A DNA stretch of 64,000 bases from a virus: IMG/VR virus record IMGVR_UViG_3300032238_000977, positions 1 through 64,000 of that record. One strand, written 5' to 3'. Under the pieces are notes generated by a model. It did not search any database, was not told the DNA's origin, and saw only the letters and a program-made list of their open reading frames with translations. The translations under genes were made by a program, and so were the position numbers. The number at the start of each line of letters is the position of its first letter. Within the stretch, counting starts at the first letter, position 1. Shown piece after piece: positions 8,692 through 59,429 of this stretch.

Positions 8692-9482
8692 CAGATTCTT
8701 TCCCACCTTTCGGGGACAAGATCAGAATCATCCAATTCAGCCTTATCCCCGAACCAATTTTTAGGAGCGATTACTCTTTTAGAATTAGATAACCATGCTC
8801 CCCACCAAGAGAATGATGAATTAGCAACAATGTGATAATCACACATCGTCATCAAGCACAGATCAACTACATTACTATTGGATTCGGAAACAAGGAATCT
8901 ATCAGATTCAAAAATCTCTTGTGCTTTGCACCAACGAACATCGTCAGAAAAAATAACAACAGGAATATCAGCATTAAGTTTGGATAATGCCTCTTCATAA
9001 TATTCCATTGAACAAATGGGATGATAATCCTGTTTACCCAAATAGTCCCCTCTACGAATATGAAGAGAAATTGCTTCTGTTCCAAAGGAAAACATTTCCT
9101 TACATGGTTTTACAATTTCATCTTTAAAGGTGAAGTCTTTTTTAATTTCATCTTCAATGTGAGAAAAATATTTCTCGGATTGAAAAAATCCATAAAGATT
9201 AATATTATCCTCACAATTATCAAATAGTTCTTGATCAAAATTGAAACCTTTTTCTTGGATGTAAGGTGCGCCCAAAACTTTTACTTCTTTTACAGACTCA
9301 AGTTTAAAGGCATCAAAAAGTTGATGATCTTTTTCTTCGCCAGCTTTTGGTTCTACCCGAAAATCGCTTGGAGGAATGCACCATTCATATTCATGTTTTT
9401 CTGCAATTCCCTTCAGTGCAGCATACTGGAACATTTGATTTCCAAGTCTACCGTTTCTACCTAAGTGGTTATAACCAATCAT
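8691..9482 (-). CDS. GT11 alpha-1,2-fucosyltransferase-like enzyme (copy A)
   Basis: 263 aa from ATG 9482, with GAGGT just upstream. GT11 hallmarks: LGRNGRLGNQMFQYAALKGI at the N-terminus, the GDP-binding SLHIRRGDYLG, the VVIFSDD strand and the C-terminal IVANSSFSWWGAWLS. The family transfers L-fucose, or a related L-sugar, from a GDP donor. A close paralogue lies at 20174-21028 and two more distant ones at 10943 and 15934. Confidence 0.88.
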   Translation of the reverse strand: MIGYNHLGRNGRLGNQMFQYAALKGIAEKHEYEWCIPPSDFRVEPKAGEEKDHQLFDAFKLESVKEVKVLGAPYIQEKGFNFDQELFDNCEDNINLYGFFQSEKYFSHIEDEIKKDFTFKDEIVKPCKEMFSFGTEAISLHIRRGDYLGKQDYHPICSMEYYEEALSKLNADIPVVIFSDDVRWCKAQEIFESDRFLVSESNSNVVDLCLMTMCDYHIVANSSFSWWGAWLSNSKRVIAPKNWFGDKAELDDSDLVPERWERI

Positions 9483-25474: not shown

Positions 25475-25475
25475 A

Positions 25476-25549
25476 TGCCCCTTGCGTGGATCGAACACGC
25501 CTCAGCCGAATTATGAGTTCGGTGCATTCACCAGATTGCTAAAAGGGCA
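25476..25549 (-). tRNA. tRNA-Met (CAT)
   Basis: 74 nt. Acceptor TGCCCTT / AGGGGCA with one G-U, anticodon stem CCGAA/TTCGG with loop CTCATAA and T-loop TTCGATC. CAT could also be a lysidine-modified Ile2; not decided here. Confidence 0.88.
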
Positions 25550-25578
25550 TTCGCTATTCGCAAATAGCGAATAGCAAT

Positions 25579-25665
25579 ACGAGTGGGTGGATTCGAACCA
25601 CCTCAAAGCCGCTAATCTGGCGGAAAGAGTTTATAAGACTCCTCTGACTACCAAGTCTCACTCGC
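25579..25665 (-). tRNA. Atypical class II tRNA, apparent anticodon TAT
   Basis: 87 nt with a 7-bp acceptor (GCGAGTG/CACTCGT), a good T arm (GGTGG TTCGAAT CCACC) and anticodon stem GGAGT/ACTCT with loop CTTATAA. The variable region is about 23 nt with a CCGC/GCGG stem, and the D-arm region is only about 16 nt. Long variable arms belong to Leu/Ser/Tyr, which never use TAT, so the isotype is uncertain. May be degenerate. Confidence 0.6.
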
Positions 25666-25669
25666 ACGA

Positions 25670-25710
25670 AAGTTGCCTTGAGGCAACTTATAAGACCTAT
25701 ATGTGGTCTT
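25670..25710 (-). other. Two adjacent hairpins between the Phd-like gene and the class II tRNA
   Basis: AAGTTGCC/GGCAACTT (25670-25689, 8 bp) and AAGACC/GGTCTT (25692-25710). No T-run, so RNA processing or a 3' end is more likely than intrinsic termination. Confidence 0.5.
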
Positions 25711-25713
25711 AAA

Positions 25714-25929
25714 TCACGAACCTTCTTCGTGATCAGTGTGGATGCGTATAAGTTCCTCATCCGAATAATCCGAAGAATCTGAAGAATCCACTATGTAATC
25801 GTAATTGGTTGTTCTTACAATAACCACTTCATTATTATCATTGTATATTTGAAATGACTCTCCAGATTCGACTCTTTCCAAGAGTTCATCAAATCTTTTT
25901 TGAAATTCTTCAACTGTAAACTTTTCCAT
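25714..25929 (-). CDS. Phd/YefM-like antitoxin-fold protein
   Basis: 71 aa from ATG 25929. EKFTVEEFQKRFDELLERVE and SGESFQIYNDNNEVVIVR parallel Phd/YefM antitoxins (helix-turn DNA-binding start, then ETVxITxxGxPVAVLV strand). The C-terminal part is very acidic (SSDSSDYSDEEL) and could bind a toxin or mimic DNA. It overlaps the upstream 197-aa gene by 20 nt. No standard toxin family is recognised next to it. Confidence 0.6.
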   Translation of the reverse strand: MEKFTVEEFQKRFDELLERVESGESFQIYNDNNEVVIVRTTNYDYIVDSSDSSDYSDEELIRIHTDHEEGS

Positions 25930-26503
25930 TAGATTCGGAGACGAGTCGTTTAAATTCGATGAGATAATCATACAGCAAATCAAATTCGTAGTCAACCCCA
26001 GCATCCATCGTAATAGAAATTTTAATATTTGATGGATCCAAATACCTTTCAAGCAACCAAACTTTATAATATGATCTAAAAAATTTAGATACAATTTTAA
26101 AGTCTAATAATTTGAAAAAATCTGCCTCAAGATCATCTGAAGATTTTTTGCTTGGATGATATACATTTATTTTATAATAGTCTTCAGAAAACCACTTCAT
26201 GTGAGATCTGACTATTTTACAATGTTCTTCGAGATCAAAATCTTGATTATTATAATAATGCATTGAAAATAAATTTAATATATTTTCAACATATACTGCA
26301 TTATATTCTGCAATATCATTCGGCATTATTTTAAAGTTCCACTCCATGTCTGGAATAAATCCACATATGAAGTGGGTTATATCATGAGAAGGTTTTGTCG
26401 GAGGTGGTTTAGGGGACGAAAAAGATTCTTGATATTCTTTATGAAGAATTTTATAATAAACCTTTCCGTTTTCCCATGACCATTCTATTTTTTGTAAACT
26501 CAT
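25910..26503 (-). CDS. Hypothetical protein upstream of the Phd-like gene
   Basis: 197 aa, rich in aromatic residues (MSLQKIEWSWENGKVYYKIL start). A Pro-rich stretch SSPKPPPTKPSHD at about 29-41 is followed by a largely helical body. No known motif. Its 20-nt overlap with the Phd-like gene makes it the only candidate partner, but nothing in it looks like a known toxin. Confidence 0.65.
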   Translation of the reverse strand: MSLQKIEWSWENGKVYYKILHKEYQESFSSPKPPPTKPSHDITHFICGFIPDMEWNFKIMPNDIAEYNAVYVENILNLFSMHYYNNQDFDLEEHCKIVRSHMKWFSEDYYKINVYHPSKKSSDDLEADFFKLLDFKIVSKFFRSYYKVWLLERYLDPSNIKISITMDAGVDYEFDLLYDYLIEFKRLVSESNGKVYS

Positions 26504-26514
26504 AATTTTTCAAT

Positions 26515-26585
26515 CGGGGCGACAGGGATCGAACCTGTGACCTCTGGTTCCCAAAACCAGCATTCTACCGCTGAACTACGCCCCG
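26515..26585 (-). tRNA. tRNA-Pro (TGG)
   Basis: 71 nt. Acceptor CGGGGCG/CGCCCCG, anticodon stem CTGGT/ACCAG with loop TTTGGGA, T-loop TTCGATC. Confidence 0.93.
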
Positions 26586-26590
26586 TAAAT

Positions 26591-26851
26591 TCACTCTACA
26601 AATTCTACCACAGGACCATTACCTTTGGCAACTACATCTTCTAAAAGATATTTTTGAACTTCGTCAAATGTTTCAAAAATTTTTTTATCATTTTCAAATT
26701 CTACCCACCAACATACATCATTTTCTGTAGGTGAATTAAGTTCTTCATCATTTTTAGGAATGGCTTCAATTATCATATGAGTATTTACACCATGCTTTTT
26801 TTCAGCCTGCATAATGGTATACATTAGAGGCAAATCAGAAATATATCTCAT
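26591..26851 (-). CDS. Hypothetical protein
   Basis: 86 aa (MRYISDLPLMYTIMQAEKKH start), acidic, with NDVCWWVEFENDKKIFETFD. First gene after the promoter at 26892-26920. Not recognised. Confidence 0.62.
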   Translation of the reverse strand: MRYISDLPLMYTIMQAEKKHGVNTHMIIEAIPKNDEELNSPTENDVCWWVEFENDKKIFETFDEVQKYLLEDVVAKGNGPVVEFVE

Positions 26852-26879
26852 TTCAATAATTTAAATTTTTTACTTATTT

Positions 26880-26960
26880 CTATGTATAAGAATTATACCT
26901 ATAATTTCTGGAATAATCAATACCAAACCAGATCGGGATTGCTGCTAAAACTTCTAACAT
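26880..26960 (-). CDS. Possible 26-aa peptide
   Basis: MLEVLAAIPIWFGIDYSRNY plus six residues. The ATG shares bases with the upstream stop (TGATG) and has a strong GGAG/AGGAG site. The promoter at 26892 lies inside it, so coding is uncertain. Confidence 0.4.
   Translation of the reverse strand: MLEVLAAIPIWFGIDYSRNYRYNSYT
26892..26920 (-). promoter_or_regulatory. Sigma70-type promoter
   Basis: TTGATT (26915-26920), 17-bp spacer, TATAAT (26892-26897), 41 nt upstream of the 86-aa gene. Confidence 0.7.
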
Positions 26961-27154
26961 CAAACTCCTCTCCAGTTCTTATATTCATAATGAAAGTATT
27001 GATCTATAGTATTATCCAGAGGGGCATCAACTTCCCATTGTGCCCATTCTTTACAAAACTGTTTAATGTATCCGTCGTTTAAGACACTTCTACCATATGA
27101 TCTCACAAAACAAGTCATCGCAAAATGATATCTTTGTTTAGTTTGCGTAAGCAT
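26960..27154 (-). CDS. Hypothetical protein
   Basis: 64 aa, Trp/Tyr-rich (FCKEWAQWEVDAPLDNTIDQ). Overlaps the 29-aa membrane peptide by 17 nt. Not recognised. Confidence 0.6.
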   Translation of the reverse strand: MLTQTKQRYHFAMTCFVRSYGRSVLNDGYIKQFCKEWAQWEVDAPLDNTIDQYFHYEYKNWRGV

Positions 27155-27227
27155 GGGTCAACCCCCAATATACAAAAATTCCAACAAAACTAAAAATAGA
27201 CACTGCGGCAAAAATAGTGTTAGTCAT
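27138..27227 (-). CDS. 29-aa single-span membrane peptide
   Basis: MTNTIFAAVSIFSFVGIFVY then WGLTHAYAN: one transmembrane helix with a short tail, similar in size and layout to small photosystem or cytochrome b6f subunits, but no match is claimed. Three-nt gap to the upstream gene and an AGAAG site. Confidence 0.6.
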   Translation of the reverse strand: MTNTIFAAVSIFSFVGIFVYWGLTHAYAN

Positions 27228-27230
27228 CTT

Positions 27231-27437
27231 CTAGTTCAAAGTAATTTTAAGAAATGGAAGTAGAGGTGGAATAACTCCAACTAACCTTAAAAGTCCTTCA
27301 GCAAATAAAGAAAGAACCACCCAACCGACGCACATACTAATGATAGAAGCATTGCGGTTATGTCTTCTGATAGCAGCATCAATCATCTCCTGCACTTCTG
27401 TGCGAGTTACATAATCATCATCAAACGGTTCCATCAT
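27231..27437 (-). CDS. Small membrane protein, unknown function
   Basis: 68 aa. A polar N-terminus (DDDYVTRTEVQEMIDAAIRR) and a C-terminal hydrophobic half with one or two membrane spans (SIISMCVGWVVLSLF, GLLRLVGVIPPLLPFL). Overlaps the upstream stop as ATGA. Confidence 0.65.
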   Translation of the reverse strand: MMEPFDDDYVTRTEVQEMIDAAIRRHNRNASIISMCVGWVVLSLFAEGLLRLVGVIPPLLPFLKITLN

Positions 27438-27583
27438 TTCCCACCTCCAAGAAATTTTTCCAAAGGATCTTTTCTTGTTTTAACTATTTCACATGCTCTC
27501 ATGTAAAACATATTTTCCATATTTCCAGACTTTTCAAATGTTTTTTTTATCTTCACCCAATTGTCGTAGGTGTGCTGATCCAT
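27434..27583 (-). CDS. Small conserved-type cyanophage protein
   Basis: 49 aa from ATG 27583 (MDQHTYDNWVKIKKTFEKSG). A longer frame to 27640 is ruled out because the promoter at 27610-27637 lies inside it. Resembles short uncharacterised cyanophage proteins I recall; function unknown. Confidence 0.7.
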   Translation of the reverse strand: MDQHTYDNWVKIKKTFEKSGNMENMFYMRACEIVKTRKDPLEKFLGGGK

Positions 27584-27609
27584 TTGATTTTTAGATTGGA
27601 TACTATTAT

Positions 27610-27637
27610 ATAATAGTCTCCAATACCAAGAAGTCAA
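27610..27637 (-). promoter_or_regulatory. Sigma70-type promoter
   Basis: TTGACT (27632-27637), 16-bp spacer, TATTAT (27610-27615). Starts the block of small genes from 27583 leftward and fixes the start codon of the 49-aa gene. Confidence 0.7.
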
Positions 27638-27697
27638 CATATGTGTTCATACCATAACACTGATAAAGAAATTGTTAAATTCGTAACTAATTTAAAA

Positions 27698-27782
27698 GGA
27701 AGATCAGGGATTCGAACCCTGGAACGCTACTAACGTTAATAGTTTTCAAGACTATCGCCATCAACCACTCGGCCAATCTTCC
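27698..27782 (-). tRNA. tRNA-Ser (TGA)
   Basis: 85-nt class II tRNA. Acceptor GGAAGAT/ATCTTCC, anticodon loop CTTGAAA, long variable arm, T-loop TTCGAAT. Confidence 0.93.
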
Positions 27783-27793
27783 AATAAAAATCC

Positions 27794-28045
27794 TTAACGG
27801 ACTTCAAAATCTAAACGTCTTACTTTACGTTGACGCCTTGCTTCTTGATAAGCAAGATCTTCATTTGTAAGAACTCCAGATTTTGTTTTGGTATCTATTG
27901 AGTTTAACATAACAACCCGAGATAAGTCAACTGCAGAGATTTTGTCTCCTCTTATCATAGTCATATTAGGACACCCACAAGTAATACTTTTTGATGGATG
28001 TCCAATCATTTCTTTATTGCAATCTTTACATCTTATTGAAATCAT
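27794..28045 (-). CDS. Small Cys-rich (zinc-ribbon-like) protein
   Basis: 83 aa. RCKDCNKEM and ITCGCPNMT give two Cys pairs about 15 residues apart at the N-terminus, consistent with a small zinc site. The C-terminus is basic (YQEARRQRKVRRLDFEVR). Possibly nucleic-acid binding; function unknown. Confidence 0.7.
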   Translation of the reverse strand: MISIRCKDCNKEMIGHPSKSITCGCPNMTMIRGDKISAVDLSRVVMLNSIDTKTKSGVLTNEDLAYQEARRQRKVRRLDFEVR

Positions 28046-28060
28046 TGTCCTTTACCCTAA

Positions 28061-28495
28061 TCACTGTAAATGAGATCTTAACATCCAAACAAACTTACCA
28101 TGGGATTCCATTAAATCCTGAACCAGATTAGCAGTTGCATATTGCTTTTGATCTTCCGATTCTTCCGAAATCTCTTTCATTAATTCACAAAACTTTTCGT
28201 TATTCTCAAGAAGTTCTTGAAGAATTTCTTTTGCTCCTGTTGAACTAGCCGCTTCTTTAATTTGCGTCACTTCAAGCATTCTTGAAAGAGAACTCAATGG
28301 TTTTACGTTTAAGTATCTCATATGCTCAGAAAGACGATCAATCTCTTCAAACATAGTTTCATACTGTCCACCAAAAAGTTGATGTAGTTGAGTGAAATCT
28401 GATCCAACTACATTCCAGTGAAATGCCCAAGTTTTATGAAATAAGACAAAAAGTGATGACTGAGCATCACTCAAGAGTTTATAAAGTTTTTCCAT
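28061..28495 (-). CDS. dps: Dps-like ferritin-family protein
   Basis: 144 aa from ATG 28495; the upstream TTG is discarded. KTWAFHWNVVGSDFTQLHQL and FEEIDRLSEHMRYLNVKPLS match the Dps ferroxidase region and helix pattern. Dps proteins store iron, quench Fenton chemistry and often bind DNA in starved or stressed cells. Here it sits inside the tRNA region between tRNA-Val and a zinc-ribbon-like gene, so early expression is likely. Confidence 0.85.
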   Translation of the reverse strand: MEKLYKLLSDAQSSLFVLFHKTWAFHWNVVGSDFTQLHQLFGGQYETMFEEIDRLSEHMRYLNVKPLSSLSRMLEVTQIKEAASSTGAKEILQELLENNEKFCELMKEISEESEDQKQYATANLVQDLMESHGKFVWMLRSHLQ

Positions 28496-28524
28496 TATAC
28501 TCTTTTTTGAGTATTTATGCAAGT

Positions 28525-28595
28525 GGGCGATACTGGATTCGAACCAGTGACCATCTCCGTGTAAAGGAGGTGCGCTACCGCTGCGCTAATCGCCC
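28525..28595 (-). tRNA. tRNA-Val (TAC)
   Basis: 71 nt. Acceptor GGGCGAT/ATCGCCC, anticodon stem CCTCC/GGAGA with loop TTTACAC, T-loop TTCGAAT. Confidence 0.92.
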
Positions 28596-28601
28596 TTAAA
28601 T

Positions 28602-28662
28602 GGATGGTAGGTATTCCCACTCGGATGTTAAGAAGGTGATTAACCGTTAACCCCGACCATCC
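28602..28662 (-). ncRNA. tRNA-like structured spacer 1
   Basis: 61 nt closed by a perfect 7-bp acceptor-like stem (GGATGGT/ACCATCC). The inside has a GTTAA/TTAAC pairing but no normal anticodon or T loop, so it is not a working tRNA. A tRNA relic or a processing structure. Confidence 0.4.
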
Positions 28663-28665
28663 AAC

Positions 28666-28736
28666 TCCCCCGGCAAGATTCGAACTTGCGACCTGGAAAT
28701 TAACAGTTTCTCGCGCTACCGCTGCGCCACAGGGGA
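28666..28736 (-). tRNA. tRNA-Asn (GTT)
   Basis: 71 nt. Acceptor TCCCCTG/CGGGGGA with one G-T pair, anticodon loop CTGTTAA, T arm GCAAG TTCGAAT CTTGC. The top anticodon pair is an A-C mismatch. Confidence 0.88.
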
Positions 28737-28741
28737 ATAAA

Positions 28742-28810
28742 GGAAGTTACTGGACTTACACCAGTTACGAGGGCATTGTCTGCTTGTCTTGATTCTTTGA
28801 CTTAACTTCC
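28742..28810 (-). ncRNA. tRNA-like structured spacer 2
   Basis: 69 nt closed by GGAAGTT/AACTTCC, with a D-like GTC/GAC stem and a T-arm-like ACTGG/CCAGT hairpin. The T loop is TGTAAGT rather than TTCRA and no anticodon stem of normal shape forms. Confidence 0.4.
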
Positions 28811-28828
28811 GCGATGGGGCAAGTGTGA

Positions 28829-28892
28829 TATACCTCATAAGGATATAACAGGGACTTACCCTCTATCATTTTATATATGGAGATAAACTCCA
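28829..28892 (-). other. Three small hairpins between tRNA-like spacer 2 and tRNA-Arg
   Basis: TATACCT/AGGATATA (28829-28847), AGGG/CCCT with an ACTTA loop (about 28850-28862) and TGGAG/CTCCA (28878-28892). The ACTTA-loop hairpin echoes the arm in spacer 2. No ORF. Confidence 0.4.
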
Positions 28893-28895
28893 AGC

Positions 28896-28968
28896 GTCTT
28901 GGGAGGGACTCGAACCCCCGACCAACTCATTAGAAGTGAGATGCTCTATCCAACTGAGCTACCAAGAC
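28896..28968 (-). tRNA. tRNA-Arg (TCT)
   Basis: 73 nt. Acceptor GTCTTGG/CCAAGAC, anticodon loop CTTCTAA, T-loop TTCGAGT. Confidence 0.95.
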
Positions 28969-28973
28969 ATAAG

Positions 28974-29006
28974 TAGGTTCCTATCGCCGCCACTCCTGAA
29001 CCTACC
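28974..29006 (-). other. 8-bp hairpin upstream of tRNA-Arg
   Basis: GTAGGTTC/GAACCTAC enclosing a 17-nt GC-rich loop. It is followed (28998-29041) by an AGTTGA/TCAACT hairpin. Lies between the promoter at 29043 and tRNA-Arg, so it is the 5' leader of that transcript. Confidence 0.45.
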
Positions 29007-29042
29007 GAAGGAGAGTGTCGCAGTTGATTTCTCAACTCTGAT

Positions 29043-29071
29043 ATTATACCAGTCCTTATGAAACTGGTCAA
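29043..29071 (-). promoter_or_regulatory. Sigma70-type promoter inside the tRNA array
   Basis: TTGACC (29066-29071), 17-bp spacer, TATAAT (29043-29048). The spacer is bounded by the inverted repeat ACCAGT/ACTGGT, which overlaps both hexamers' inner edges. Confidence 0.82.
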
Positions 29072-29082
29072 GTGTGCCGTGT

Positions 29083-29155
29083 GGTTGTGAATCTAAATCA
29101 AACCTTTTTGATAAGTGCCCCACTGGATCTTATCTAAAGTTTTGAACCACGGCAA
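29083..29155 (-). ncRNA. Structured spacer 3 between tRNA-Ile and the internal promoter
   Basis: Closed by TGCCGTG/CACGGCA, extendable by GGTT/AACC, with an inner GATAAG/CTTATC hairpin. About the size of a tRNA but with no anticodon or T loop. Confidence 0.4.
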
Positions 29156-29157
29156 GT

Positions 29158-29230
29158 GGGAAATCCTGGACTCGAACCAGGCACCTCACGATTATCAGTC
29201 GTGCGCTCTAACCAACTGAGCTAATCTCCC
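29158..29230 (-). tRNA. tRNA-Ile (GAT)
   Basis: 73 nt. Acceptor GGGAGAT/ATTTCCC with G-T pairs, anticodon loop CTGATAA, T-loop TTCGAGT. Confidence 0.94.
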
Positions 29231-29234
29231 ACAC

Positions 29235-29322
29235 GGAGGATGTTGGATTTGAACCAACGGAGACCCGTAAAGATCTCAAGAACTTAGCAGGTTCCCGCTT
29301 TAAGCCACTCAGCCAATCCTCC
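29235..29322 (-). tRNA. tRNA-Ser (GCT)
   Basis: 88-nt class II. Acceptor GGAGGAT/ATCCTCC, anticodon loop CTGCTAA, long variable arm, T-loop TTCAAAT. Confidence 0.93.
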
Positions 29323-29325
29323 AAT

Positions 29326-29397
29326 GGGTCAAGTGAGACTCGAACTCACGACTTACAGGTTAAAAGCCCGCTACTCTACCAACTGAGTTATTGACCC
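29326..29397 (-). tRNA. tRNA-Lys (TTT)
   Basis: 72 nt. Acceptor GGGTCAA/TTGACCC, anticodon loop CTTTTAA, T-loop TTCGAGT. Confidence 0.95.
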
Positions 29398-29402
29398 AAA
29401 GT

Positions 29403-29483
29403 GGGCAGGGAGGGATTTGAACCCCCGTAGGCAGAGCCAGCGGATTTACAGTCCGCCTCCATTAACCACTCGGACACCTACCC
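29403..29483 (-). tRNA. tRNA-Tyr (GTA)
   Basis: 81-nt class II. Acceptor GGGTAGG/CCTGCCC with one G-T, anticodon loop CTGTAAA, T-loop TTCAAAT. First tRNA after the promoter at 29560. Confidence 0.93.
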
Positions 29484-42916: not shown

Positions 42917-42920
42917 ACAT

Positions 42921-42992
42921 GGAGAATAGGGGACTCGAACCCCTCACCCCCGCCGTGCAAAGGCGGTGCTCTACCAAATGAGCTAATTCCCC
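42921..42992 (-). tRNA. tRNA-Ala (TGC)
   Basis: 72 nt. Acceptor GGGGAAT/ATTCTCC with one G-T, anticodon stem CCGCC/GGCGG with loop TTTGCAC, T-loop TTCGAGT. Stands alone, 13 kb from the main array. Confidence 0.95.
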
Positions 42993-43009
42993 AAAAAACC
43001 CCTTACGGG

Positions 43010-51067: not shown

Positions 51068-51450
51068 TTTGTTCCGCCAGTTTCAAGTCGTTTTTTAATA
51101 AAATCTAATTGTTCTTTATTTAGAATCTTCAAAGCTTGAGATGCCTTCTCATTACTATATCCATAGTATTGTTTAACACATTCTAAATCTTTGATTTTAT
51201 CCTTTCGGAGCCAAGGAGAAAATCTCTTACGCTTCCTAAGACTATTTAGATAAAACAAATATTGCATATCTTTTGTAAGGTGATGATTAATATTCATCTC
51301 ATTAGCAAAAAGAATACAGTCAATATTTCCAGATAAACATCTGTTAATAATATATGGTGGATAATTTTTTATCGAATCTGAAGATTCTTCTACAAAATTC
51401 TCTTTAGTAAAATTAATAGAGTTTAACCAATCCTTAAGTTCATAAGTCAT
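51064..51450 (-). CDS. 62: Clamp loader small subunit (T4 gp62-like)
   Basis: 128 aa, shorter than T4 gp62. YELKDWLNSINFTKENFVEE, YPPYIINRCLSGNIDCILFA and NSLRKRKRFSPWLRKDK match cyanophage gp62. It forms the loader with gp44. ATGA coupling on both sides. Confidence 0.88.
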   Translation of the reverse strand: MTYELKDWLNSINFTKENFVEESSDSIKNYPPYIINRCLSGNIDCILFANEMNINHHLTKDMQYLFYLNSLRKRKRFSPWLRKDKIKDLECVKQYYGYSNEKASQALKILNKEQLDFIKKRLETGGTK

Positions 51451-52508
51451 CGAATAATCTCCAAATCACTTCCCAGTTTCCAAAGTTCTAACTCAGTTCT
51501 TAGACGATTTTCATTCTTCAGTTTTTCATATCTTTTACTTGCCTTCTTTTTCCACCAAGAAATTACATCATCGGGTTCATATCCAAACTCAGAAATATAA
51601 TATCTTTTCTTTTCAGTTAAAGATTTAGCATATTCAATTGACTGCTTAAACTCATTCAACTTTGAAGTATCCTGAAGAGAATTTGTAATGATTGAAATCA
51701 TCTTTGTTTGTATTTTTAACTTTTTAGATGATTTATCTGCAGATATGAGACGCTCCCCACCATTGGCTTTATTATTAAACCACCAAAACATTTCACGAAA
51801 ATAATCATCGTGAAAAAGAGGTAGAAACTTACTTTCAGTATCTCCAATGTGTCGAATATAAGGTTTAAGACCATCGTACATTGATATACCCTTTGTCGTT
51901 CCGTACAAGGATGTTGTTTCAAAATAACGGAGATTCGTTCCGTACTTATTATCAAAATCCCTTTTTAATTTGTTTGAAGAAGCTAGTAAAGCAAGTAATT
52001 TTCCACCAAGATAATTGTATCCGAAGGGTTGTACTGGGACAATATTAAATCCCATAACAAATTCTTTATTGATTGTAGATAAAGAAAGAACTTCTCCAAA
52101 ATAATCATTTCTTGGTTTTGAATTAATAGTTGGAGATCCAAACCTAACTACGCCAATAATCTTTTTTGTACTTTCTTCTGTTACTATCCACTTCAAAGTT
52201 CTTCCAGGAATTGCTTCTTCAATTGCATTTGAAGCAGTCTCGTTTAATATTTCCGAATATAAATCTTGATTGTATTTTGATGCTGGTTTGGGACTAGTAT
52301 CCACCTCATGAATCTGGAAATCCATTTCATTCGGATGAATATTAAAATTGGAAAAAATTTCATACTCTGGACCAAACAACTTACCAGAAGCATTGGTAAG
52401 TCTACTAGACTTTACAAATCTCAAATAATCATCAATTCGATTAAATCTTGAATAATAGTTTATAAATTGATCCGCAGCCCACACAGCATCTTCATTTGAA
52501 AGACTCAT
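51447..52508 (-). CDS. DUF4338/DruA-like protein between genes 44 and 62
   Basis: 353 aa. MGFNIVPVQPFGYNYLGGKL, LLALLASSNKLKRDFDNKYG and RYFETTSLYGTTKG resemble a LGGKLLALLA ... TTS(x)xGRSS pattern I associate with DUF4338 proteins, the family that includes Druantia DruA. The C-terminal 130 residues are helical and basic. Coupled by ATGA to the clamp-loader genes, so it may act at or near the replisome. The family link is from memory and needs a profile search. Confidence 0.55.
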   Translation of the reverse strand: MSLSNEDAVWAADQFINYYSRFNRIDDYLRFVKSSRLTNASGKLFGPEYEIFSNFNIHPNEMDFQIHEVDTSPKPASKYNQDLYSEILNETASNAIEEAIPGRTLKWIVTEESTKKIIGVVRFGSPTINSKPRNDYFGEVLSLSTINKEFVMGFNIVPVQPFGYNYLGGKLLALLASSNKLKRDFDNKYGTNLRYFETTSLYGTTKGISMYDGLKPYIRHIGDTESKFLPLFHDDYFREMFWWFNNKANGGERLISADKSSKKLKIQTKMISIITNSLQDTSKLNEFKQSIEYAKSLTEKKRYYISEFGYEPDDVISWWKKKASKRYEKLKNENRLRTELELWKLGSDLEIIR

Positions 52509-54680: not shown

Positions 54681-54709
54681 ATTATATCAGAAAGAAGCGG
54701 GTTGGTCAA
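54681..54709 (-). promoter_or_regulatory. Sigma70-type promoter of the clamp/loader operon
   Basis: TTGACC (54704-54709), 17-bp spacer, TATAAT (54681-54686), lying across the 3' end of the cobS-like gene. Confidence 0.87.
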
Positions 54710-55817
54710 TATTAGGATTGATATCCACTTGTTCAATAGGCATCTGGAAGTCAACATCAACCTTGTCGTACAGTTCCAAGAACGACTGTTTGGTCTCCTC
54801 ATCAAAGCGGTTCACACACACTTGAATTGCCTTTGCCTTGTCTTGGAAGATGCTGTAGGCGCGGATGATATGGACCAGACGACGGGTAGAGATGATTTCC
54901 TCAATACCACCATCATAGAAGGTCTTGCGGATGATATCTGCCCAATCAGTAAGACGCTTGCAGAAGTCACGGTCTTCCACGCCAAGGTCCAGGGCAACGC
55001 CTTCCAGGATCTTCTGCTCGATAGCAGGAGCAGGATAGGACTGCTCAAGGGTTACGGGGAAACGCTCAAGGAATGCTTCGTTAAGAACGTTAGTACCGAT
55101 GAATCGCCCATCATCAGAACCCTTACCTTTTGTATTAGCAGTAGCTACAATGTTGAAACCAACAGCAGGTTTCACAAACTTACCAATTTTTTTCAGGAAG
55201 ACACCTTTACCTTCCAGGATGGACTGGAGGCACAGAATCTTGTTAGAGGCAAGGTCAATCTCATCCAGAAGCAGGACAGCACCACGTTCCAGTGCTTCTA
55301 CAACGGGACCATTATGCCAGACAGTTTCACCATTCACAAGACGGAAACCTCCGATTAGATCATCCTCATCAGTTTCGATAGTGATATTTACACGGATGAG
55401 TTCACGCTTAAGTTGGGCACACGCTTGCTCAACAGAGAACGTTTTACCGTTACCCGACAGACCCGTGATAAACGCAGGGTAAAAAATATTGGACTGAATA
55501 ATTTTTTTAATATCACCAAAGTTACCAAACTTGACGAAGGTATCATCTTTATCGGGAATAAGGTTTTGTTCCACGGCAGGAAGAGCGGGAGGTGCTTGAT
55601 AAGAACGTTCGATTTCTTGAACACGCTCCTGAGTAACTTCAAGATTCCAACGACCACGGGAAGTTTTAAACTTATCAAGGCGACGGGTCACCGTCTGATA
55701 ATTCAGACTACGGGAAGCGCAGAAACCCTTGATATCACCGGCACTCAGTTCAGAACCGAACAGAGATTGAAGTTCAGCAATCAGTTGATCGTCAGTCACA
55801 GAAATCTTGCGGGGCAT
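54687..55817 (-). CDS. cobS: AAA+ ATPase, CobS/MoxR-like
   Basis: 376 aa. N-terminal helical region to about 90, then the ATPase core: Walker A GLSGNGKT at 119-126, DEDDLIGGFRLVNGETVWHN, Walker B LLLDEID at 182-188, NIVATANTKGKGS (sensor 1) and ALNEAFLERFP-type arginine finger region (NVLNEAFLERFPVTL). Annotated in cyanophages as the cobaltochelatase subunit CobS, but the family (MoxR-like) mostly remodels protein complexes with a VWA partner, and such a partner is encoded at 57223. Confidence 0.9.
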   Translation of the reverse strand: MPRKISVTDDQLIAELQSLFGSELSAGDIKGFCASRSLNYQTVTRRLDKFKTSRGRWNLEVTQERVQEIERSYQAPPALPAVEQNLIPDKDDTFVKFGNFGDIKKIIQSNIFYPAFITGLSGNGKTFSVEQACAQLKRELIRVNITIETDEDDLIGGFRLVNGETVWHNGPVVEALERGAVLLLDEIDLASNKILCLQSILEGKGVFLKKIGKFVKPAVGFNIVATANTKGKGSDDGRFIGTNVLNEAFLERFPVTLEQSYPAPAIEQKILEGVALDLGVEDRDFCKRLTDWADIIRKTFYDGGIEEIISTRRLVHIIRAYSIFQDKAKAIQVCVNRFDEETKQSFLELYDKVDVDFQMPIEQVDINPNIDQPASF

Positions 55818-55850: not shown

Positions 55851-55887
55851 ATTATAGCAGCAAAAAGGGGGTCTTGAGGACCCCCAG
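55851..55887 (-). terminator. Terminator followed by TATAAT upstream of cobS
   Basis: Minus-strand GGGGGTC-CTCAA-GACCCCC-TTTTT (55862-55887), five bases, then TATAAT (55851-55856), 34 nt upstream of the cobS-like ATG. No -35 hexamer. Confidence 0.82.
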
Positions 55888-55888
55888 T

Positions 55889-55908
55889 GGTCAGTTCACT
55901 AACTGGTT
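55889..55908. repeat. Dispersed 20-nt palindrome, copy 3
   Basis: GGTCAGTTCACTAACTGGTT across the last codons and stop of the 64-aa gene, next to a terminator. Confidence 0.5.
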
Positions 55909-56085
55909 TCTCAACTGCTCCAAATACTCTTGAGAAGCAATTTTTGGTTTATATCCAGGATAAAACATTTTAACAAGAGTTCCAACTCCCATAGCAGTGA
56001 TAGCACTATCACACTTTACCCAAACTTCTTGAGTATCATACTTAACAACGTGATCATATGGAAATTTATCAAGTTTTTTAGACAT
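55891..56085 (-). CDS. Small hypothetical protein
   Basis: 64 aa from ATG 56085 with a GAGGA site (MSKKLDKFPYDHVVKYDTQE start). Contains WVKCDSAITAMGVGTLVKMF. Not recognised. Confidence 0.7.
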   Translation of the reverse strand: MSKKLDKFPYDHVVKYDTQEVWVKCDSAITAMGVGTLVKMFYPGYKPKIASQEYLEQLRNQLVN

Positions 56086-56086
56086 T

Positions 56087-57196
56087 TCAATCCTCAACTG
56101 TAAATGTTTTGTTTTTTACTTTAGTATCAAATTCACCAGTTCTTCCTGGTTTCATTTTACCAATTTTAACATTCTTACCCTTTCCAGGCCAAGAAGTTTT
56201 TGATGTTCCTTTAAGAGTTGCACTTCCACCACCCTTACGTTGAATCAAAACAGAATCTTGATCGTACTTTTTACCCAATTTTTCAATTGCTTTTTTAAAC
56301 TGCCTTTTTCCTTTTTTACCAGGAGTAATGACGTGAGATTTTTCAGCAACTTTTTTCTCCTGAGAAGTCCCTGGGTTCTCAGTATATCTACCTTTTACTT
56401 TAGTAGGTCCTGGAAGACCAGCACCTCTTACATCTTTTTCAAGTTGTTTTGAACGTGCTTTATTCTCTGACTTTGATTTGTCTCCACGTTGGGCAGACAT
56501 AATAGCCATCCCACCTTTTTCAGATTTGGACTTAATTCTATTCAAGGATGTTTCTTGAATAGAATTGCATTCTAGCATAAATTGCTTAAATGATTTACCT
56601 TCCTCTAGTTTTGCCATTTGTACTCCTGTTTTTGGATTTCTTTCACCCATACCAAGTTTTTTATATATTCTACCTCTTTGCTCTGCACCTTCATCATCAC
56701 TTCTCTTTCTTTTTTTCCCCGATGAACTAATAGCAGTAGGAGTATTGGTAGCAACACCCTTACGCTCTTTCATCTTATCTTTTACATCTTTCAAAGCTCC
56801 GACAAATTGTCTTGCCCTTTGCCCTGGTTCTTTTACCTTAGACTTTGGAGAACCCACAGTAATATCATGCACTTCAGAATCTTTTTTAGCTCCAGTTTTA
56901 TGAAACTGTTTTTTCAATTCTTTAGCATCAACCTTTTCACCCTCTTTATGTTTTTGTTTTGATGTATGAGCAGCATAATCTGCAGGAGACTTATGAGTTC
57001 TTACCCAAACAGGAACATCCTTCCCACTTTTTTCCACCTTTGGATCTTGAATAGGACCCTTCTTTCTAAATCCAGCACGAGCAACATCTTTTCTAGCAGC
57101 ACCTTCGGATCCGGGAATAGGCATTGTACCTGATTTGCCGGATCCTTTCATTTTAAGTAAAGTCCTTTCATCAAGGATTTCTTCCTGAAACTGCAT
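56087..57196 (-). CDS. Highly basic virion-type protein
   Basis: 369 aa with repeated Lys/Gly/Ser low complexity and frequent KxGK, KKxG motifs. Short recognisable pieces: QEEILDERTLLKMKGSGKSG (start), LEEGKSFKQFMLECNSIQE at about 200 (similar to the MKSFSKFLSEAQ leader of the 414-aa protein). No enzymatic motif. Probably an internal head or DNA-binding structural protein. Confidence 0.68.
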   Translation of the reverse strand: MQFQEEILDERTLLKMKGSGKSGTMPIPGSEGAARKDVARAGFRKKGPIQDPKVEKSGKDVPVWVRTHKSPADYAAHTSKQKHKEGEKVDAKELKKQFHKTGAKKDSEVHDITVGSPKSKVKEPGQRARQFVGALKDVKDKMKERKGVATNTPTAISSSGKKRKRSDDEGAEQRGRIYKKLGMGERNPKTGVQMAKLEEGKSFKQFMLECNSIQETSLNRIKSKSEKGGMAIMSAQRGDKSKSENKARSKQLEKDVRGAGLPGPTKVKGRYTENPGTSQEKKVAEKSHVITPGKKGKRQFKKAIEKLGKKYDQDSVLIQRKGGGSATLKGTSKTSWPGKGKNVKIGKMKPGRTGEFDTKVKNKTFTVED

Positions 57197-57222: not shown

Positions 57223-59373
57223 TTAAGCAACAAGATCCATAAACTCTCCCAAAACCCGCTTGTTCATCTTTTTAGATTTCAGACTCTTTACAAAAGCAGA
57301 TTTAATTTGTGCTTTGGTTGCACATTCATGAACATCAAACTCAGCATCTTGAGATAAAGCAGTTGCAGAAAGACCAAAGTAAGAATGATACCCAGATTTT
57401 TTGATAGAGATTGCTTTTTCCTTTTTCCAAGTAGACATTACTTTTTCATAATCAGGACCATAGCATCCACAGTAACGGCGGATAAAACTTCCAGCATCAC
57501 GACTTTCAAGAACACGGATACCAATGAAGTTAATATAAGCAAATTTATCTCGGAGATTGCAAAGAAGAACATCAGTAAATTTCCACCACTCACCATCAAG
57601 AGAATAAGTGTTACCAGTCTTGCGATCACGAAGGAAAGCATTAGAACCAATGTGAGAAACGCCAATAAAAGGACCTTCTTCCCAGTTACGTTGAACTTCA
57701 CGATGATACTTTGGAGACTGAGATTCACCATCAGTAAGAATCACACATTGAACTTTTTGCAGTTTGTTTTCGCTCCGAAACTTTGGAAGAATTTGATGAA
57801 GAGTAATCAGAGTCTCATTCAATGGAGTTCCAGAAAGATTCAAACCCAAAGGAATATTATAACTACAATTATACGAACGACTAAAAGCTGCAGAAAGACG
57901 AAAAATGTTTTTCATTTGCTCATCTAGAGTTTTGCCATTTACTTTACTAGTCAGAAGATTCATCAAAGAAAACCATTCACCGACTTGAACAAGTCCATCA
58001 CGTTTTTCATAAGAAAGTTCGCGGAAATTTGCTTTACCATCTTCATCATAGGAAACCAAAGGATAATCAGTAGTAAAAGCATAAACCTCAAAAGGAATCG
58101 AAACTTTCTTACAGAACCAAACAAGGTTGAAAAGTTGCTTTACCGTATCCAACATCACATCCCCCATTGAACCAGACCAGTCCAGAATGAATACCAGACC
58201 GTGATTCTTGCCGTCTGCAAGTGTTGTGACCTTGCGGAACAGGTCTTCATTGTATTTGTAGGTGTGCAGTTTAGAGCAGTCTAGAACACCTGTACGCGCC
58301 GTCGTCGCACGTGCATAACTATCTGCTGCCTTACGGCACTCAAACTCTTTTACCAGATAATTAACTTCCTTCTGAGCAGAACGCTTGAACTGATTGAACT
58401 GAGTATCAACATTCCCAAAAATTTCGTCATGAGTGTACCCAGTACGCTCAAGATAATCTTTCCAAGTTTCCTTACACTTATCATGAATTTCTGCATTTGG
58501 AACGATTACTTTTTTCAAATCAAGTTTAGGAAGTTCAATATAAACATTCTCATAACCACTAGTATTAACCAAGTCTTTTAGAGATTCTTCCAAAGAATCC
58601 ATAGTTTTAACTTCAGGTTCTTCATTCTCATCACCACCCACGGGAGAGTTAGTAGATTTCAGTTGCTCCGAAGATTCGCTGGAAGCAGAACCATCAGAAC
58701 CATCAGATTCGGGTTGGTCGTTCTCACCTTCTCGTTGATCGGAGAAGTCAGAAGCAGGTTGTTGATTAGCACCACTTTGTTGAGACTCAAGATTATCAAT
58801 TTGAGTCTTAGTTTCTTCTTGCTTTTTTTGTTTACAATACTTATAGAGTGCTTCTGCAGCGATCAGAACATCAGCAAAGGTTTCGGTATCGGCAATCAGG
58901 TTGATGATTTCAGTTTCTTCGCCACGCTCAACAGGAATATCTACAAAATTACCAACCTTGAACCACAGGTTAGCACGGTCAGCAAGGTTATAAGTTTCCA
59001 GTTTATCATCACCAATCTGAAAGAAATCTTGGTCAGCAAGTTCCTTATAACCGTTGAAGAAAGTCTTAGCAAGACCAGCATAACGACGCTTCATCAGTTT
59101 CTCGATGCGAGCATCTTCCACCACATTCACAAACTGCGGGGGAATCTTGTGCTCCTTCAACCAGTCTTCATCAGGCGTAAAAAGTGCATGACCAACCTCA
59201 TGTCCTACCAGAAGGTCATAGACTGTATTGCTTGCCTTCTCCCACAGAGGCAGCGTCAGCACACGAGTATGAACATTAAAACAGGCAGTCTCTACTTTCT
59301 TATGCTCAACCACAAGATCTTCAGTAGCAAGCAGTTTAGCCAGTTGTGACTTGATTTCGTGGCGGACAGTCAT
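57223..59373 (-). CDS. Metalloprotease plus VWA domain protein, CobT-like
   Basis: 716 aa from ATG 59373; a longer frame to 59454 would read through the -10 and terminator. The N-terminal part has HEVGHALFTP at about 58-67, a HExxH zinc-peptidase motif, with NVVEDARIEKLM downstream as a plausible third-ligand helix. An acidic Ser/Gln-rich linker spans about 185-265. A VWA domain from about 390 carries the MIDAS DWSGSMGD at 398-405 and VILTDGESQS. The layout matches CobT/VWA partners of MoxR-type ATPases; the CobS-like ATPase lies two genes downstream. Confidence 0.85.
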   Translation of the reverse strand: MTVRHEIKSQLAKLLATEDLVVEHKKVETACFNVHTRVLTLPLWEKASNTVYDLLVGHEVGHALFTPDEDWLKEHKIPPQFVNVVEDARIEKLMKRRYAGLAKTFFNGYKELADQDFFQIGDDKLETYNLADRANLWFKVGNFVDIPVERGEETEIINLIADTETFADVLIAAEALYKYCKQKKQEETKTQIDNLESQQSGANQQPASDFSDQREGENDQPESDGSDGSASSESSEQLKSTNSPVGGDENEEPEVKTMDSLEESLKDLVNTSGYENVYIELPKLDLKKVIVPNAEIHDKCKETWKDYLERTGYTHDEIFGNVDTQFNQFKRSAQKEVNYLVKEFECRKAADSYARATTARTGVLDCSKLHTYKYNEDLFRKVTTLADGKNHGLVFILDWSGSMGDVMLDTVKQLFNLVWFCKKVSIPFEVYAFTTDYPLVSYDEDGKANFRELSYEKRDGLVQVGEWFSLMNLLTSKVNGKTLDEQMKNIFRLSAAFSRSYNCSYNIPLGLNLSGTPLNETLITLHQILPKFRSENKLQKVQCVILTDGESQSPKYHREVQRNWEEGPFIGVSHIGSNAFLRDRKTGNTYSLDGEWWKFTDVLLCNLRDKFAYINFIGIRVLESRDAGSFIRRYCGCYGPDYEKVMSTWKKEKAISIKKSGYHSYFGLSATALSQDAEFDVHECATKAQIKSAFVKSLKSKKMNKRVLGEFMDLVA

Positions 59374-59394: not shown

Positions 59395-59429
59395 ATTATA
59401 CAAAAAAAGGAGGTCTTGCGACCCCCCAG
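59395..59429 (-). terminator. Terminator followed by TATAAT upstream of the CobT-like gene
   Basis: Minus-strand GGGGGTC-GCAA-GACCTCC-TTTTTTT then G and TATAAT (59395-59400). TATAAT is 21 nt upstream of the ATG; no -35 hexamer. Confidence 0.85.

What the first reader, a model, noticed from the sequence alone, without database searches (positions are those of the whole stretch)
57223..59373. CobS/MoxR-like ATPase and a HExxH + VWA partner: a phage chaperone or chelatase machine
Seen: AAA+ ATPase at 54687-55817 and a 716-aa protein with a HEVGH motif, acidic linker and MIDAS VWA domain, two genes apart, both behind terminator-TATAAT elements. Known: MoxR ATPases act with VWA proteins; CobS-CobT insert cobalt into the corrin ring. 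No other cobalamin genes are seen here. Inference: either tuning of B12 for ribonucleotide reductase or, given class Ia NrdAB without B12 need, a protein-remodelling or protease function during virion assembly.
Basis: partly seen in the sequence, partly recalled or inferred. Interest (0 to 1): 0.62.

Follow-up and report, generated by a model that had tools for sequence, protein, structure and literature searches.

The report
Phage ATPase and zincin-like VWA partner
A virus of cyanobacteria carries a well-known two-gene set that is usually labelled as a vitamin B12 enzyme, but its larger protein keeps an intact-looking protein-cutting site that true B12 proteins have lost, so it looks more like an ATP-driven machine that remodels and perhaps cuts proteins.

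Summary
The 716-aa protein (57223-59373, minus strand) has HEVGH at residues 58-62, an acidic linker and a MIDAS VWA domain. The MoxR/CobS-type AAA+ gene lies two genes downstream. Both belong to known phage families: phrog_459 'peptidase' and phrog_249 'porphyrin biosynthesis'. The window is a T4-like cyanophage related to S-SRM01 and P-SSM2. In 181 of 181 full-length relatives the HExxH and a downstream N..EDxR[IV][ED] motif are kept. All 85 loci with at least 4 kb of downstream sequence carry the ATPase on the same strand. Three phages reported to lack cobS also lack the peptidase. AlphaFold models the N-terminus as a compact domain whose PDB neighbours are almost all zincin metallopeptidases; the VWA part resembles midasin and NorD. 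Authentic CobT from CobN-bearing bacteria has lost HExxH at the aligned position. No phage genome tested encodes CobN, and the phage encodes B12-independent class Ia NrdAB. Best reading: an ATP-driven remodelling machine with a metalloprotease module, not a cobaltochelatase. Both readings are already in print (PMC8651126, PMC7824862). Added here: the HExxH split, the zincin fold and the coupled loss. Activity and substrate are not shown.

The parts
57223..59373 (-). 716-aa zincin-like + acidic linker + VWA protein (phrog_459 'peptidase')
   Evidence: phrog_459 E 1.1e-266 over 3-716; 463 phage records with a match; AlphaFold model pLDDT 77
58786..59373 (-). N-terminal domain, residues 1-196, predicted zincin (gluzincin-like) fold
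   Evidence: AlphaFold pLDDT 88.4, pTM 0.84; PDB neighbours are almost all zincins: ArdC Z 7.7, selecase 6.9, ZMPSTE24 6.5
59188..59202 (-). HEVGH, residues 58-62, presumed metal-binding and catalytic motif
   Evidence: invariant H58, E59, H62 in 85 aligned N-termini and HExxH in 181 of 181 full-length relatives
59101..59118 (-). EDARIE, residues 86-91; E86 is the candidate third metal ligand on the next helix
   Evidence: N83, E86, D87 invariant; helix 79-97 in the model; ligand role inferred
58624..58797 (-). acidic linker of very low model confidence, about residues 193-250
   Evidence: pLDDT under 50; acidic composition
58165..58182 (-). MIDAS DWSGSM, residues 398-403
   Evidence: invariant D398, S402, M403; VWA fold: midasin MIDAS Z 16.6, NorD VWA Z about 15
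57724..57735 (-). TDGE, residues 547-550, second MIDAS aspartate D548
   Evidence: D548 and G549 invariant
54687..55817 (-). 376-aa MoxR/CobS-type AAA+ ATPase partner (phrog_249), Walker A GLSGNGKT
   Evidence: phrog_249 E 4.6e-135; PF07728 64.2 bits; downstream on the same strand in relatives
56087..57196 (-). intervening gene with S-adenosylmethionine lyase domain; not a conserved part of the pair
   Evidence: PF23780 E 2.2e-16; other genes in this place in P-SSM2 and ACG-2014d
55891..56097 (-). intervening 68-aa ORF of unknown function
   Evidence: no family hit
59408..59427 (-). hairpin terminator upstream of the zincin-VWA gene
59395..59400 (-). TATAAT after that terminator; no -35 found
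55867..55885 (-). hairpin terminator upstream of the ATPase gene
55851..55856 (-). TATAAT after that terminator; no -35 found

Best explanation
The two genes encode one machine: a MoxR/CobS-type AAA+ ATPase (ring-forming by analogy) and a co-factor that joins a zincin-type metallopeptidase domain to a MIDAS VWA domain. The VWA domain would capture a peptide or protein ligand through its MIDAS metal and dock on the ATPase, as in NorQ-NorD and midasin. ATP hydrolysis would remodel or unfold the captured protein, and the HExxH domain would cut it. Shown: both genes, conserved pairing, coupled absence, invariant HExxH and MIDAS, predicted zincin and VWA folds, absence of CobN from the phages. Inferred: complex formation, bound metal, proteolysis, substrate. 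The substrate is unknown and need not be a virion protein. The machine is probably not a cobaltochelatase.
For: Pairing: ATPase found downstream on the same strand in 161 of 181 relatives and in all 85 with at least 4 kb of room, median gap 291 nt. S-H34, S-B68 and S-N03 lack both genes while the related S-CRM01 has both. Of 384 S-SRM01 ORFs only three share the presence/absence profile, two of them the pair. Zincin: HExxH and N..EDxR invariant; PDB neighbours of the N-terminal model are almost all HExxH metalloproteins. VWA: midasin and NorD. Against chelatase: CobT of CobN-bearing genomes has no HExxH; no CobN in 15 phages; 10 of the 14 bacterial genomes tested that carry a zincin-type pair have no CobN; an E. 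coli phage has the zincin-type pair while the E. coli control genome has no CobN match.
Against: No activity, metal or complex has been measured. Fold matches to zincins are modest (Z at most 7.7; Foldseek E 0.06 at best). One relative, Pseudomonas phage nickie, keeps the pair but has SEISK in place of HEVAH, so the cutting function is not universal. Cyanobacterial hosts do have CobN-type proteins (S. elongatus control), so chelatase hijacking is not excluded in this host.
Confidence: 0.58

Rival explanations
1. Viral cobaltochelatase subunits: the pair joins host CobN and drives cobalt insertion to raise B12 supply (reading of PMC8651126 and of most cyanophage annotation).
For: Remote CobT kinship: relatives of the same architecture match Pfam CobT and CobT_C strongly. 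Cyanobacteria have CobN but no CobS or CobT (PMC9227772; CobN-family match in S. elongatus).
Against: The window protein is below the CobT cut-off (9.5 against 26.1 bits) and the ATPase far below the CobS cut-off (65.6 against 558.55). CobN-linked CobT lacks HExxH. The pair occurs in phages of E. coli and Salmonella, and 10 of 14 pair-bearing bacterial genomes lack CobN. The phage ribonucleotide reductase is class Ia.
Confidence: 0.15
2. Non-proteolytic activator or metal-insertion chaperone of the NorQ-NorD, CbbQ-CbbO or RavA-ViaA kind; the HExxH domain is a metal-binding or structural element.
For: The closest VWA structures besides midasin are NorD VWA domains solved with NorQ; the ATPase matches CobS, NorQ and CbbQ chains. 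Phage nickie and CobT show that such a pair can work without HExxH.
Against: Strict conservation of the catalytic glutamate E59 in 181 of 181 relatives is more than metal binding by the two histidines needs.
Confidence: 0.2
3. The HExxH is coincidental or the N-terminal domain is an unrelated helical fold.
For: HExxH arises in 2.2% of shuffles of this protein; fold matches have moderate scores.
Against: Invariance across phages of many hosts and near-exclusive zincin neighbours.
Confidence: 0.05

Closest known systems
phrog_459 'peptidase' with phrog_249 'porphyrin biosynthesis' (cyanophage core cobS and its neighbour)
   Same: Full-length membership of both proteins, order and strand
   Different: Two genes, one with an SAM-lyase domain, lie between the pair here; median gap in relatives is 291 nt
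MoxR AAA+ with vWA fused to an N-terminal metallopeptidase in group 2.2 jumbo phages (PMC7824862)
   Same: Same architecture and gene pairing, same proposed idea of remodelling plus proteolysis
   Different: Direct homology to the accessions named there was not tested; the virion-assembly role is a proposal in that paper and not shown here
Aerobic cobaltochelatase CobS-CobT (with CobN)
   Same: AAA+ plus acidic linker plus VWA; remote homology through intermediates that match Pfam CobT
   Different: HExxH present, no CobN, scores below family cut-offs, ATPase outside the CobS clade
NorQ-NorD and midasin
   Same: MoxR-clade ATPase acting with a MIDAS VWA; nearest solved VWA structures
   Different: The NorD-like VWA proteins seen here (L265, L266) carry no HExxH
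ArdC, selecase and minigluzincins, ZMPSTE24, Wss1 (zincins)
   Same: Predicted fold and HExxH of the N-terminal domain
   Different: No detectable sequence relation; no VWA or ATPase partner known to me

Membership tests
phrog_459 / phrog_249 | full-length profile match | tested here: met
   E 1.1e-266 over 3-716 and E 4.6e-135 over 2-362
Cobaltochelatase CobT (PF06213, PF11775) | score above Pfam cut-off | tested here: not met
   PF06213 9.5 bits against 26.1; no PF11775 match at E 1
Cobaltochelatase CobT (PF06213, PF11775) | VWA domain with MIDAS | tested here: met
   D398xSxS, D548; VWA fold
Cobaltochelatase CobT (PF06213, PF11775) | encoded with CobN | tested here: not met
   no PF02514 in the 78-kb record or in 15 phage genomes; cyanobacterial hosts do have CobN
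Cobaltochelatase CobT (PF06213, PF11775) | no HExxH at the aligned position (feature of all CobN-linked CobT examined) | tested here: not met
   CobT has GLGDSMALRKACHD where zincin members have GFLDHEVGHLLFTD; host CobT in L280-L283 without HExxH
Cobaltochelatase CobS (TIGR01650) | equivalog score | tested here: not met
   65.6 bits against 558.55; genuine CobS is a separate 100/100 clade
Cobaltochelatase complex | cobalt insertion activity with CobN | not testable with these tools
   needs biochemistry
Zincin / gluzincin metallopeptidase | invariant HExxH | tested here: met
   181 of 181 relatives; 85 of 85 N-termini
Zincin / gluzincin metallopeptidase | zincin fold | tested here: met
   top neighbours of the predicted model are zincins, with moderate Z up to 7.7
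Zincin / gluzincin metallopeptidase | third metal ligand, glutamate on a following helix | tested here: inconclusive
   E86 invariant on helix 79-97; geometry not measured
Zincin / gluzincin metallopeptidase | bound zinc and peptidase activity | not testable with these tools
   needs biochemistry
MoxR-vWA-metallopeptidase pair of jumbo phages (PMC7824862) | AAA+ gene beside a vWA gene with N-terminal metallopeptidase domain | tested here: met
MoxR-vWA-metallopeptidase pair of jumbo phages (PMC7824862) | MoxR-clade helix-2 insert in the ATPase | not tested
   ATPase structure not predicted; best sequence matches are midasin, CobS, NorQ

The most novel reading that the evidence does not exclude
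The pair is a widespread phage AAA+ metalloprotease in which the cutting domain rides on the VWA co-factor, and the CobT subunit of cobaltochelatase is a degenerate, non-cutting descendant or sister of this class. The long-standing 'cobS' label of marine cyanophages would then be wrong.
Probability: 0.38. Interest if true: 0.75.

Novelty: new member of a known kind. Interest (0 to 1): 0.5.

Why it matters
cobS is a core gene of marine T4-like cyanophages (PMC3037559), and whether it has its cellular function in the infected host is stated to be unknown (PMC9983427). It is still counted as a vitamin B12 gene in surveys of viral metabolism. If the pair is a protein-remodelling protease, those counts are wrong and the real substrate in infected cyanobacteria becomes a direct experimental target. 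The HExxH split between phage-type proteins and CobN-linked CobT gives a simple rule for annotators.

Tried and rejected
Sequence search of the PDB with the protein and with its 66-row profile found nothing significant. The whole-protein fold search was filled by VWA domains, so the N-terminal domain was folded alone. Solved CobT chains (9uka, 21vu) exist by sequence but did not appear among the fold-search rows; this is inconclusive. Profile comparison of the cyanophage family with CobT alone was weak (probability 4%), while the wider family aligned to CobT through the VWA part (99.9%). No PADLOC match for the pair, so no evidence for a defence role. The Pfam metallopeptidase-VWA family DUF2201 did not appear. 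A viral scan with the Ochrobactrum phage protein found nothing. The deep branching of the ATPase tree is unresolved because of long branches. Staphylococcus phage K hits are a weak ATPase match with no HExxH-plus-MIDAS ORF nearby, so I did not count them. A literature search on the SSU5 phage-plasmids and cobST gave nothing useful.

Full report
What is there. The minus-strand ORF 57223-59373 encodes 716 aa and the minus-strand ORF 54687-55817 encodes a 376-aa AAA+ ATPase. HEVGH lies at residues 58-62, a MIDAS motif DWSGSM at 398-403 and TDGE at 547-550. The two genes are separated by a 369-aa gene with a SAM-lyase domain and a 68-aa ORF. Each follows a hairpin terminator and a TATAAT, but this layout recurs elsewhere in the window, and no -35 box was found.

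Context. The record is a 78-kb virus fragment with sliding clamp, clamp loader, family B polymerase and class Ia NrdA and NrdB. The nearest isolate by the pair is Synechococcus phage S-SRM01 (74% and 86% identity), which has peptidase, one other gene and ATPase in the same order.

Known families. Both proteins are full-length members of known phage families, phrog_459 'peptidase' and phrog_249 'porphyrin biosynthesis'. In the phage collection, the counts of records named Synechococcus, Cyanophage and Prochlorococcus are the same for the two proteins: 365, 61 and 24. The clamp loader is found in 376 Synechococcus records, so about eleven such records appear to lack both.

The pair is a unit. 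In 161 of 181 relatives the ATPase lies downstream on the same strand, and it is present in all 85 loci with at least 4 kb of downstream sequence; the median gap is 291 nt. S-CREM2, S-H34, S-N03 and S-B68 are reported to lack cobS (PMC10665884). I tested S-H34, S-B68 and S-N03: all lack phrog_459 as well, and only clamp-loader-level ATPase hits remain, whereas S-CRM01 of the same cluster has both genes adjacent. Profiling 384 ORFs of S-SRM01 against four pair-positive and three pair-negative phages left three ORFs with the same profile, and two of them are the pair. The sample of genomes is small.

The N-terminal domain. H58, E59, H62, N83, E86 and D87 are invariant in 85 diverse N-termini, and HExxH with N..EDxR[IV][ED] is present in 181 of 181 full-length relatives. 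AlphaFold gives residues 1-196 with pLDDT 88 and pTM 0.84. The nearest solved structures are ArdC, selecase and other minigluzincins, ZMPSTE24, BlaR1, Wss1 and PprI. Each score is modest (Z up to 7.7), but the list is almost purely zincin. I infer a zincin domain with E59 as catalytic base and E86 as possible third ligand; metal and activity are not shown.

The VWA domain. The best structural matches are midasin MIDAS (Z 16.6) and NorD VWA in complex with NorQ (Z about 15). Both act with MoxR-clade ATPases, and the common scheme is peptide capture by the VWA and remodelling by the ATPase (review text in PMC7159879).

Is it CobS-CobT? By membership tests, no. The ATPase scores 65.6 bits against an equivalog cut-off of 558.55, and the VWA protein 9.5 against 26.1. 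Yet there is kinship: proteins with the same architecture from phages and phage-like loci in enterobacteria and other hosts match Pfam CobT and CobT_C above cut-off while holding HExxH. Aligned to them, genuine CobT from Sinorhizobium, Sphingomonas, Pandoraea and Methylobacterium has SMALR-type residues in place of HEVGH and keeps the glutamate of the second motif.

In bacterial genomes reached through the pair, the split is nearly clean. Host-type CobT without HExxH (L280-L283) was found in four genomes, and all four have CobN matches; the other ten pair-bearing genomes have no CobN, and their pair proteins hold HExxH in every case read. L286, a second CobT-like protein without HExxH in a Photobacterium genome that has no CobN, does not fit. 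The two Pseudomonas genomes of that set are NorQ-NorD-like loci and were left out of the count. The CobN match in the Methylocystis bin is partial.

Against the B12 reading. No CobN was found in 15 phage genomes. The phage ribonucleotide reductase is class Ia, NrdA 1070 bits (cut-off 813) and NrdB 494.5 bits (cut-off 346), and needs no B12. The zincin-type pair occurs in an E. coli phage and in Salmonella phage SSU5, whereas the E. coli control genome has no CobN match. Two phages of Pelagibacter ubique carry the pair, a host suggested to rely on scavenging or alternative routes (PMC4303638). For the B12 reading: cyanobacteria have CobN and lack CobS and CobT (PMC9227772), so a phage pair could in principle join host CobN, as proposed in PMC8651126.

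A caution on the protease reading. Pseudomonas phage nickie keeps the pair, but its N-terminal domain reads SEISK in place of HEVAH. Loss of the site has therefore happened in a phage as well as in CobT, and the core function may be remodelling with proteolysis added in most lineages.

Literature. [quoted passage not shown] PMC7824862 describes a MoxR-vWA pair with an N-terminal metallopeptidase in jumbo phages and proposes virion assembly with proteolysis. My evidence favours the second view on the chemistry but does not support or exclude virion assembly; T4-like phages without the pair still form virions (PMC10665884).

Verdict. A real, conserved, already described gene pair. The most likely mechanism is ATP-driven protein remodelling with a metalloprotease module. 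New here, as far as I could find, are the HExxH split between phage-type proteins and CobN-linked CobT, the zincin fold prediction, and the coupled absence.

Noticed in passing
window 56087-57196 (-): 369-aa gene with a C-terminal S-adenosylmethionine lyase domain (PF23780, E 2e-16) and a long basic N-terminal part; a SAM hydrolase is reported as virion-associated in S-CREM2 (PMC10665884).
   Followed up: partly
window 51447-52508 (-): 353-aa protein with a DruA-like match (PF14236, E 4.5e-13, Druantia defence protein) inside the replication cluster; phrog_19197, unknown function.
   Followed up: no
L383:2474-4558: Pseudomonas phage nickie CobT-like protein has lost the HExxH (SEISK) while keeping the MIDAS and the ATPase gene.
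   Followed up: yes
L243:6757-9500 and L252:6643-9506: In two Sphingomonas loci the zincin domain and the VWA domain are separate ORFs next to the ATPase, so the modules may work as separate chains.
   Followed up: partly
L243:9605-10834, L252:9605-10846, L213:2383-3615: The ATPase of the prophage and phage-plasmid versions starts with a CxxC...HxxxxH zinc-finger-like segment that the window ATPase lacks.
   Followed up: no
L370, minus strand, ORF at 9020 (S-SRM01): A 199-aa ORF is the only other S-SRM01 family sharing the presence/absence profile of the pair in eight phages; its first 80 aa have no Pfam match.
   Followed up: partly
L217-L242: Many top 'bacterial' or 'archaeal' genome hits look like cyanophage-type contigs binned into unrelated MAGs.
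   Followed up: partly
window 25475-29483: Cluster of eleven tRNA genes, with a twelfth (Ala) at 42919-42993.
   Followed up: no
L286: A Photobacterium genome without CobN holds a second CobT-like protein lacking HExxH; its role is unclear.
   Followed up: no
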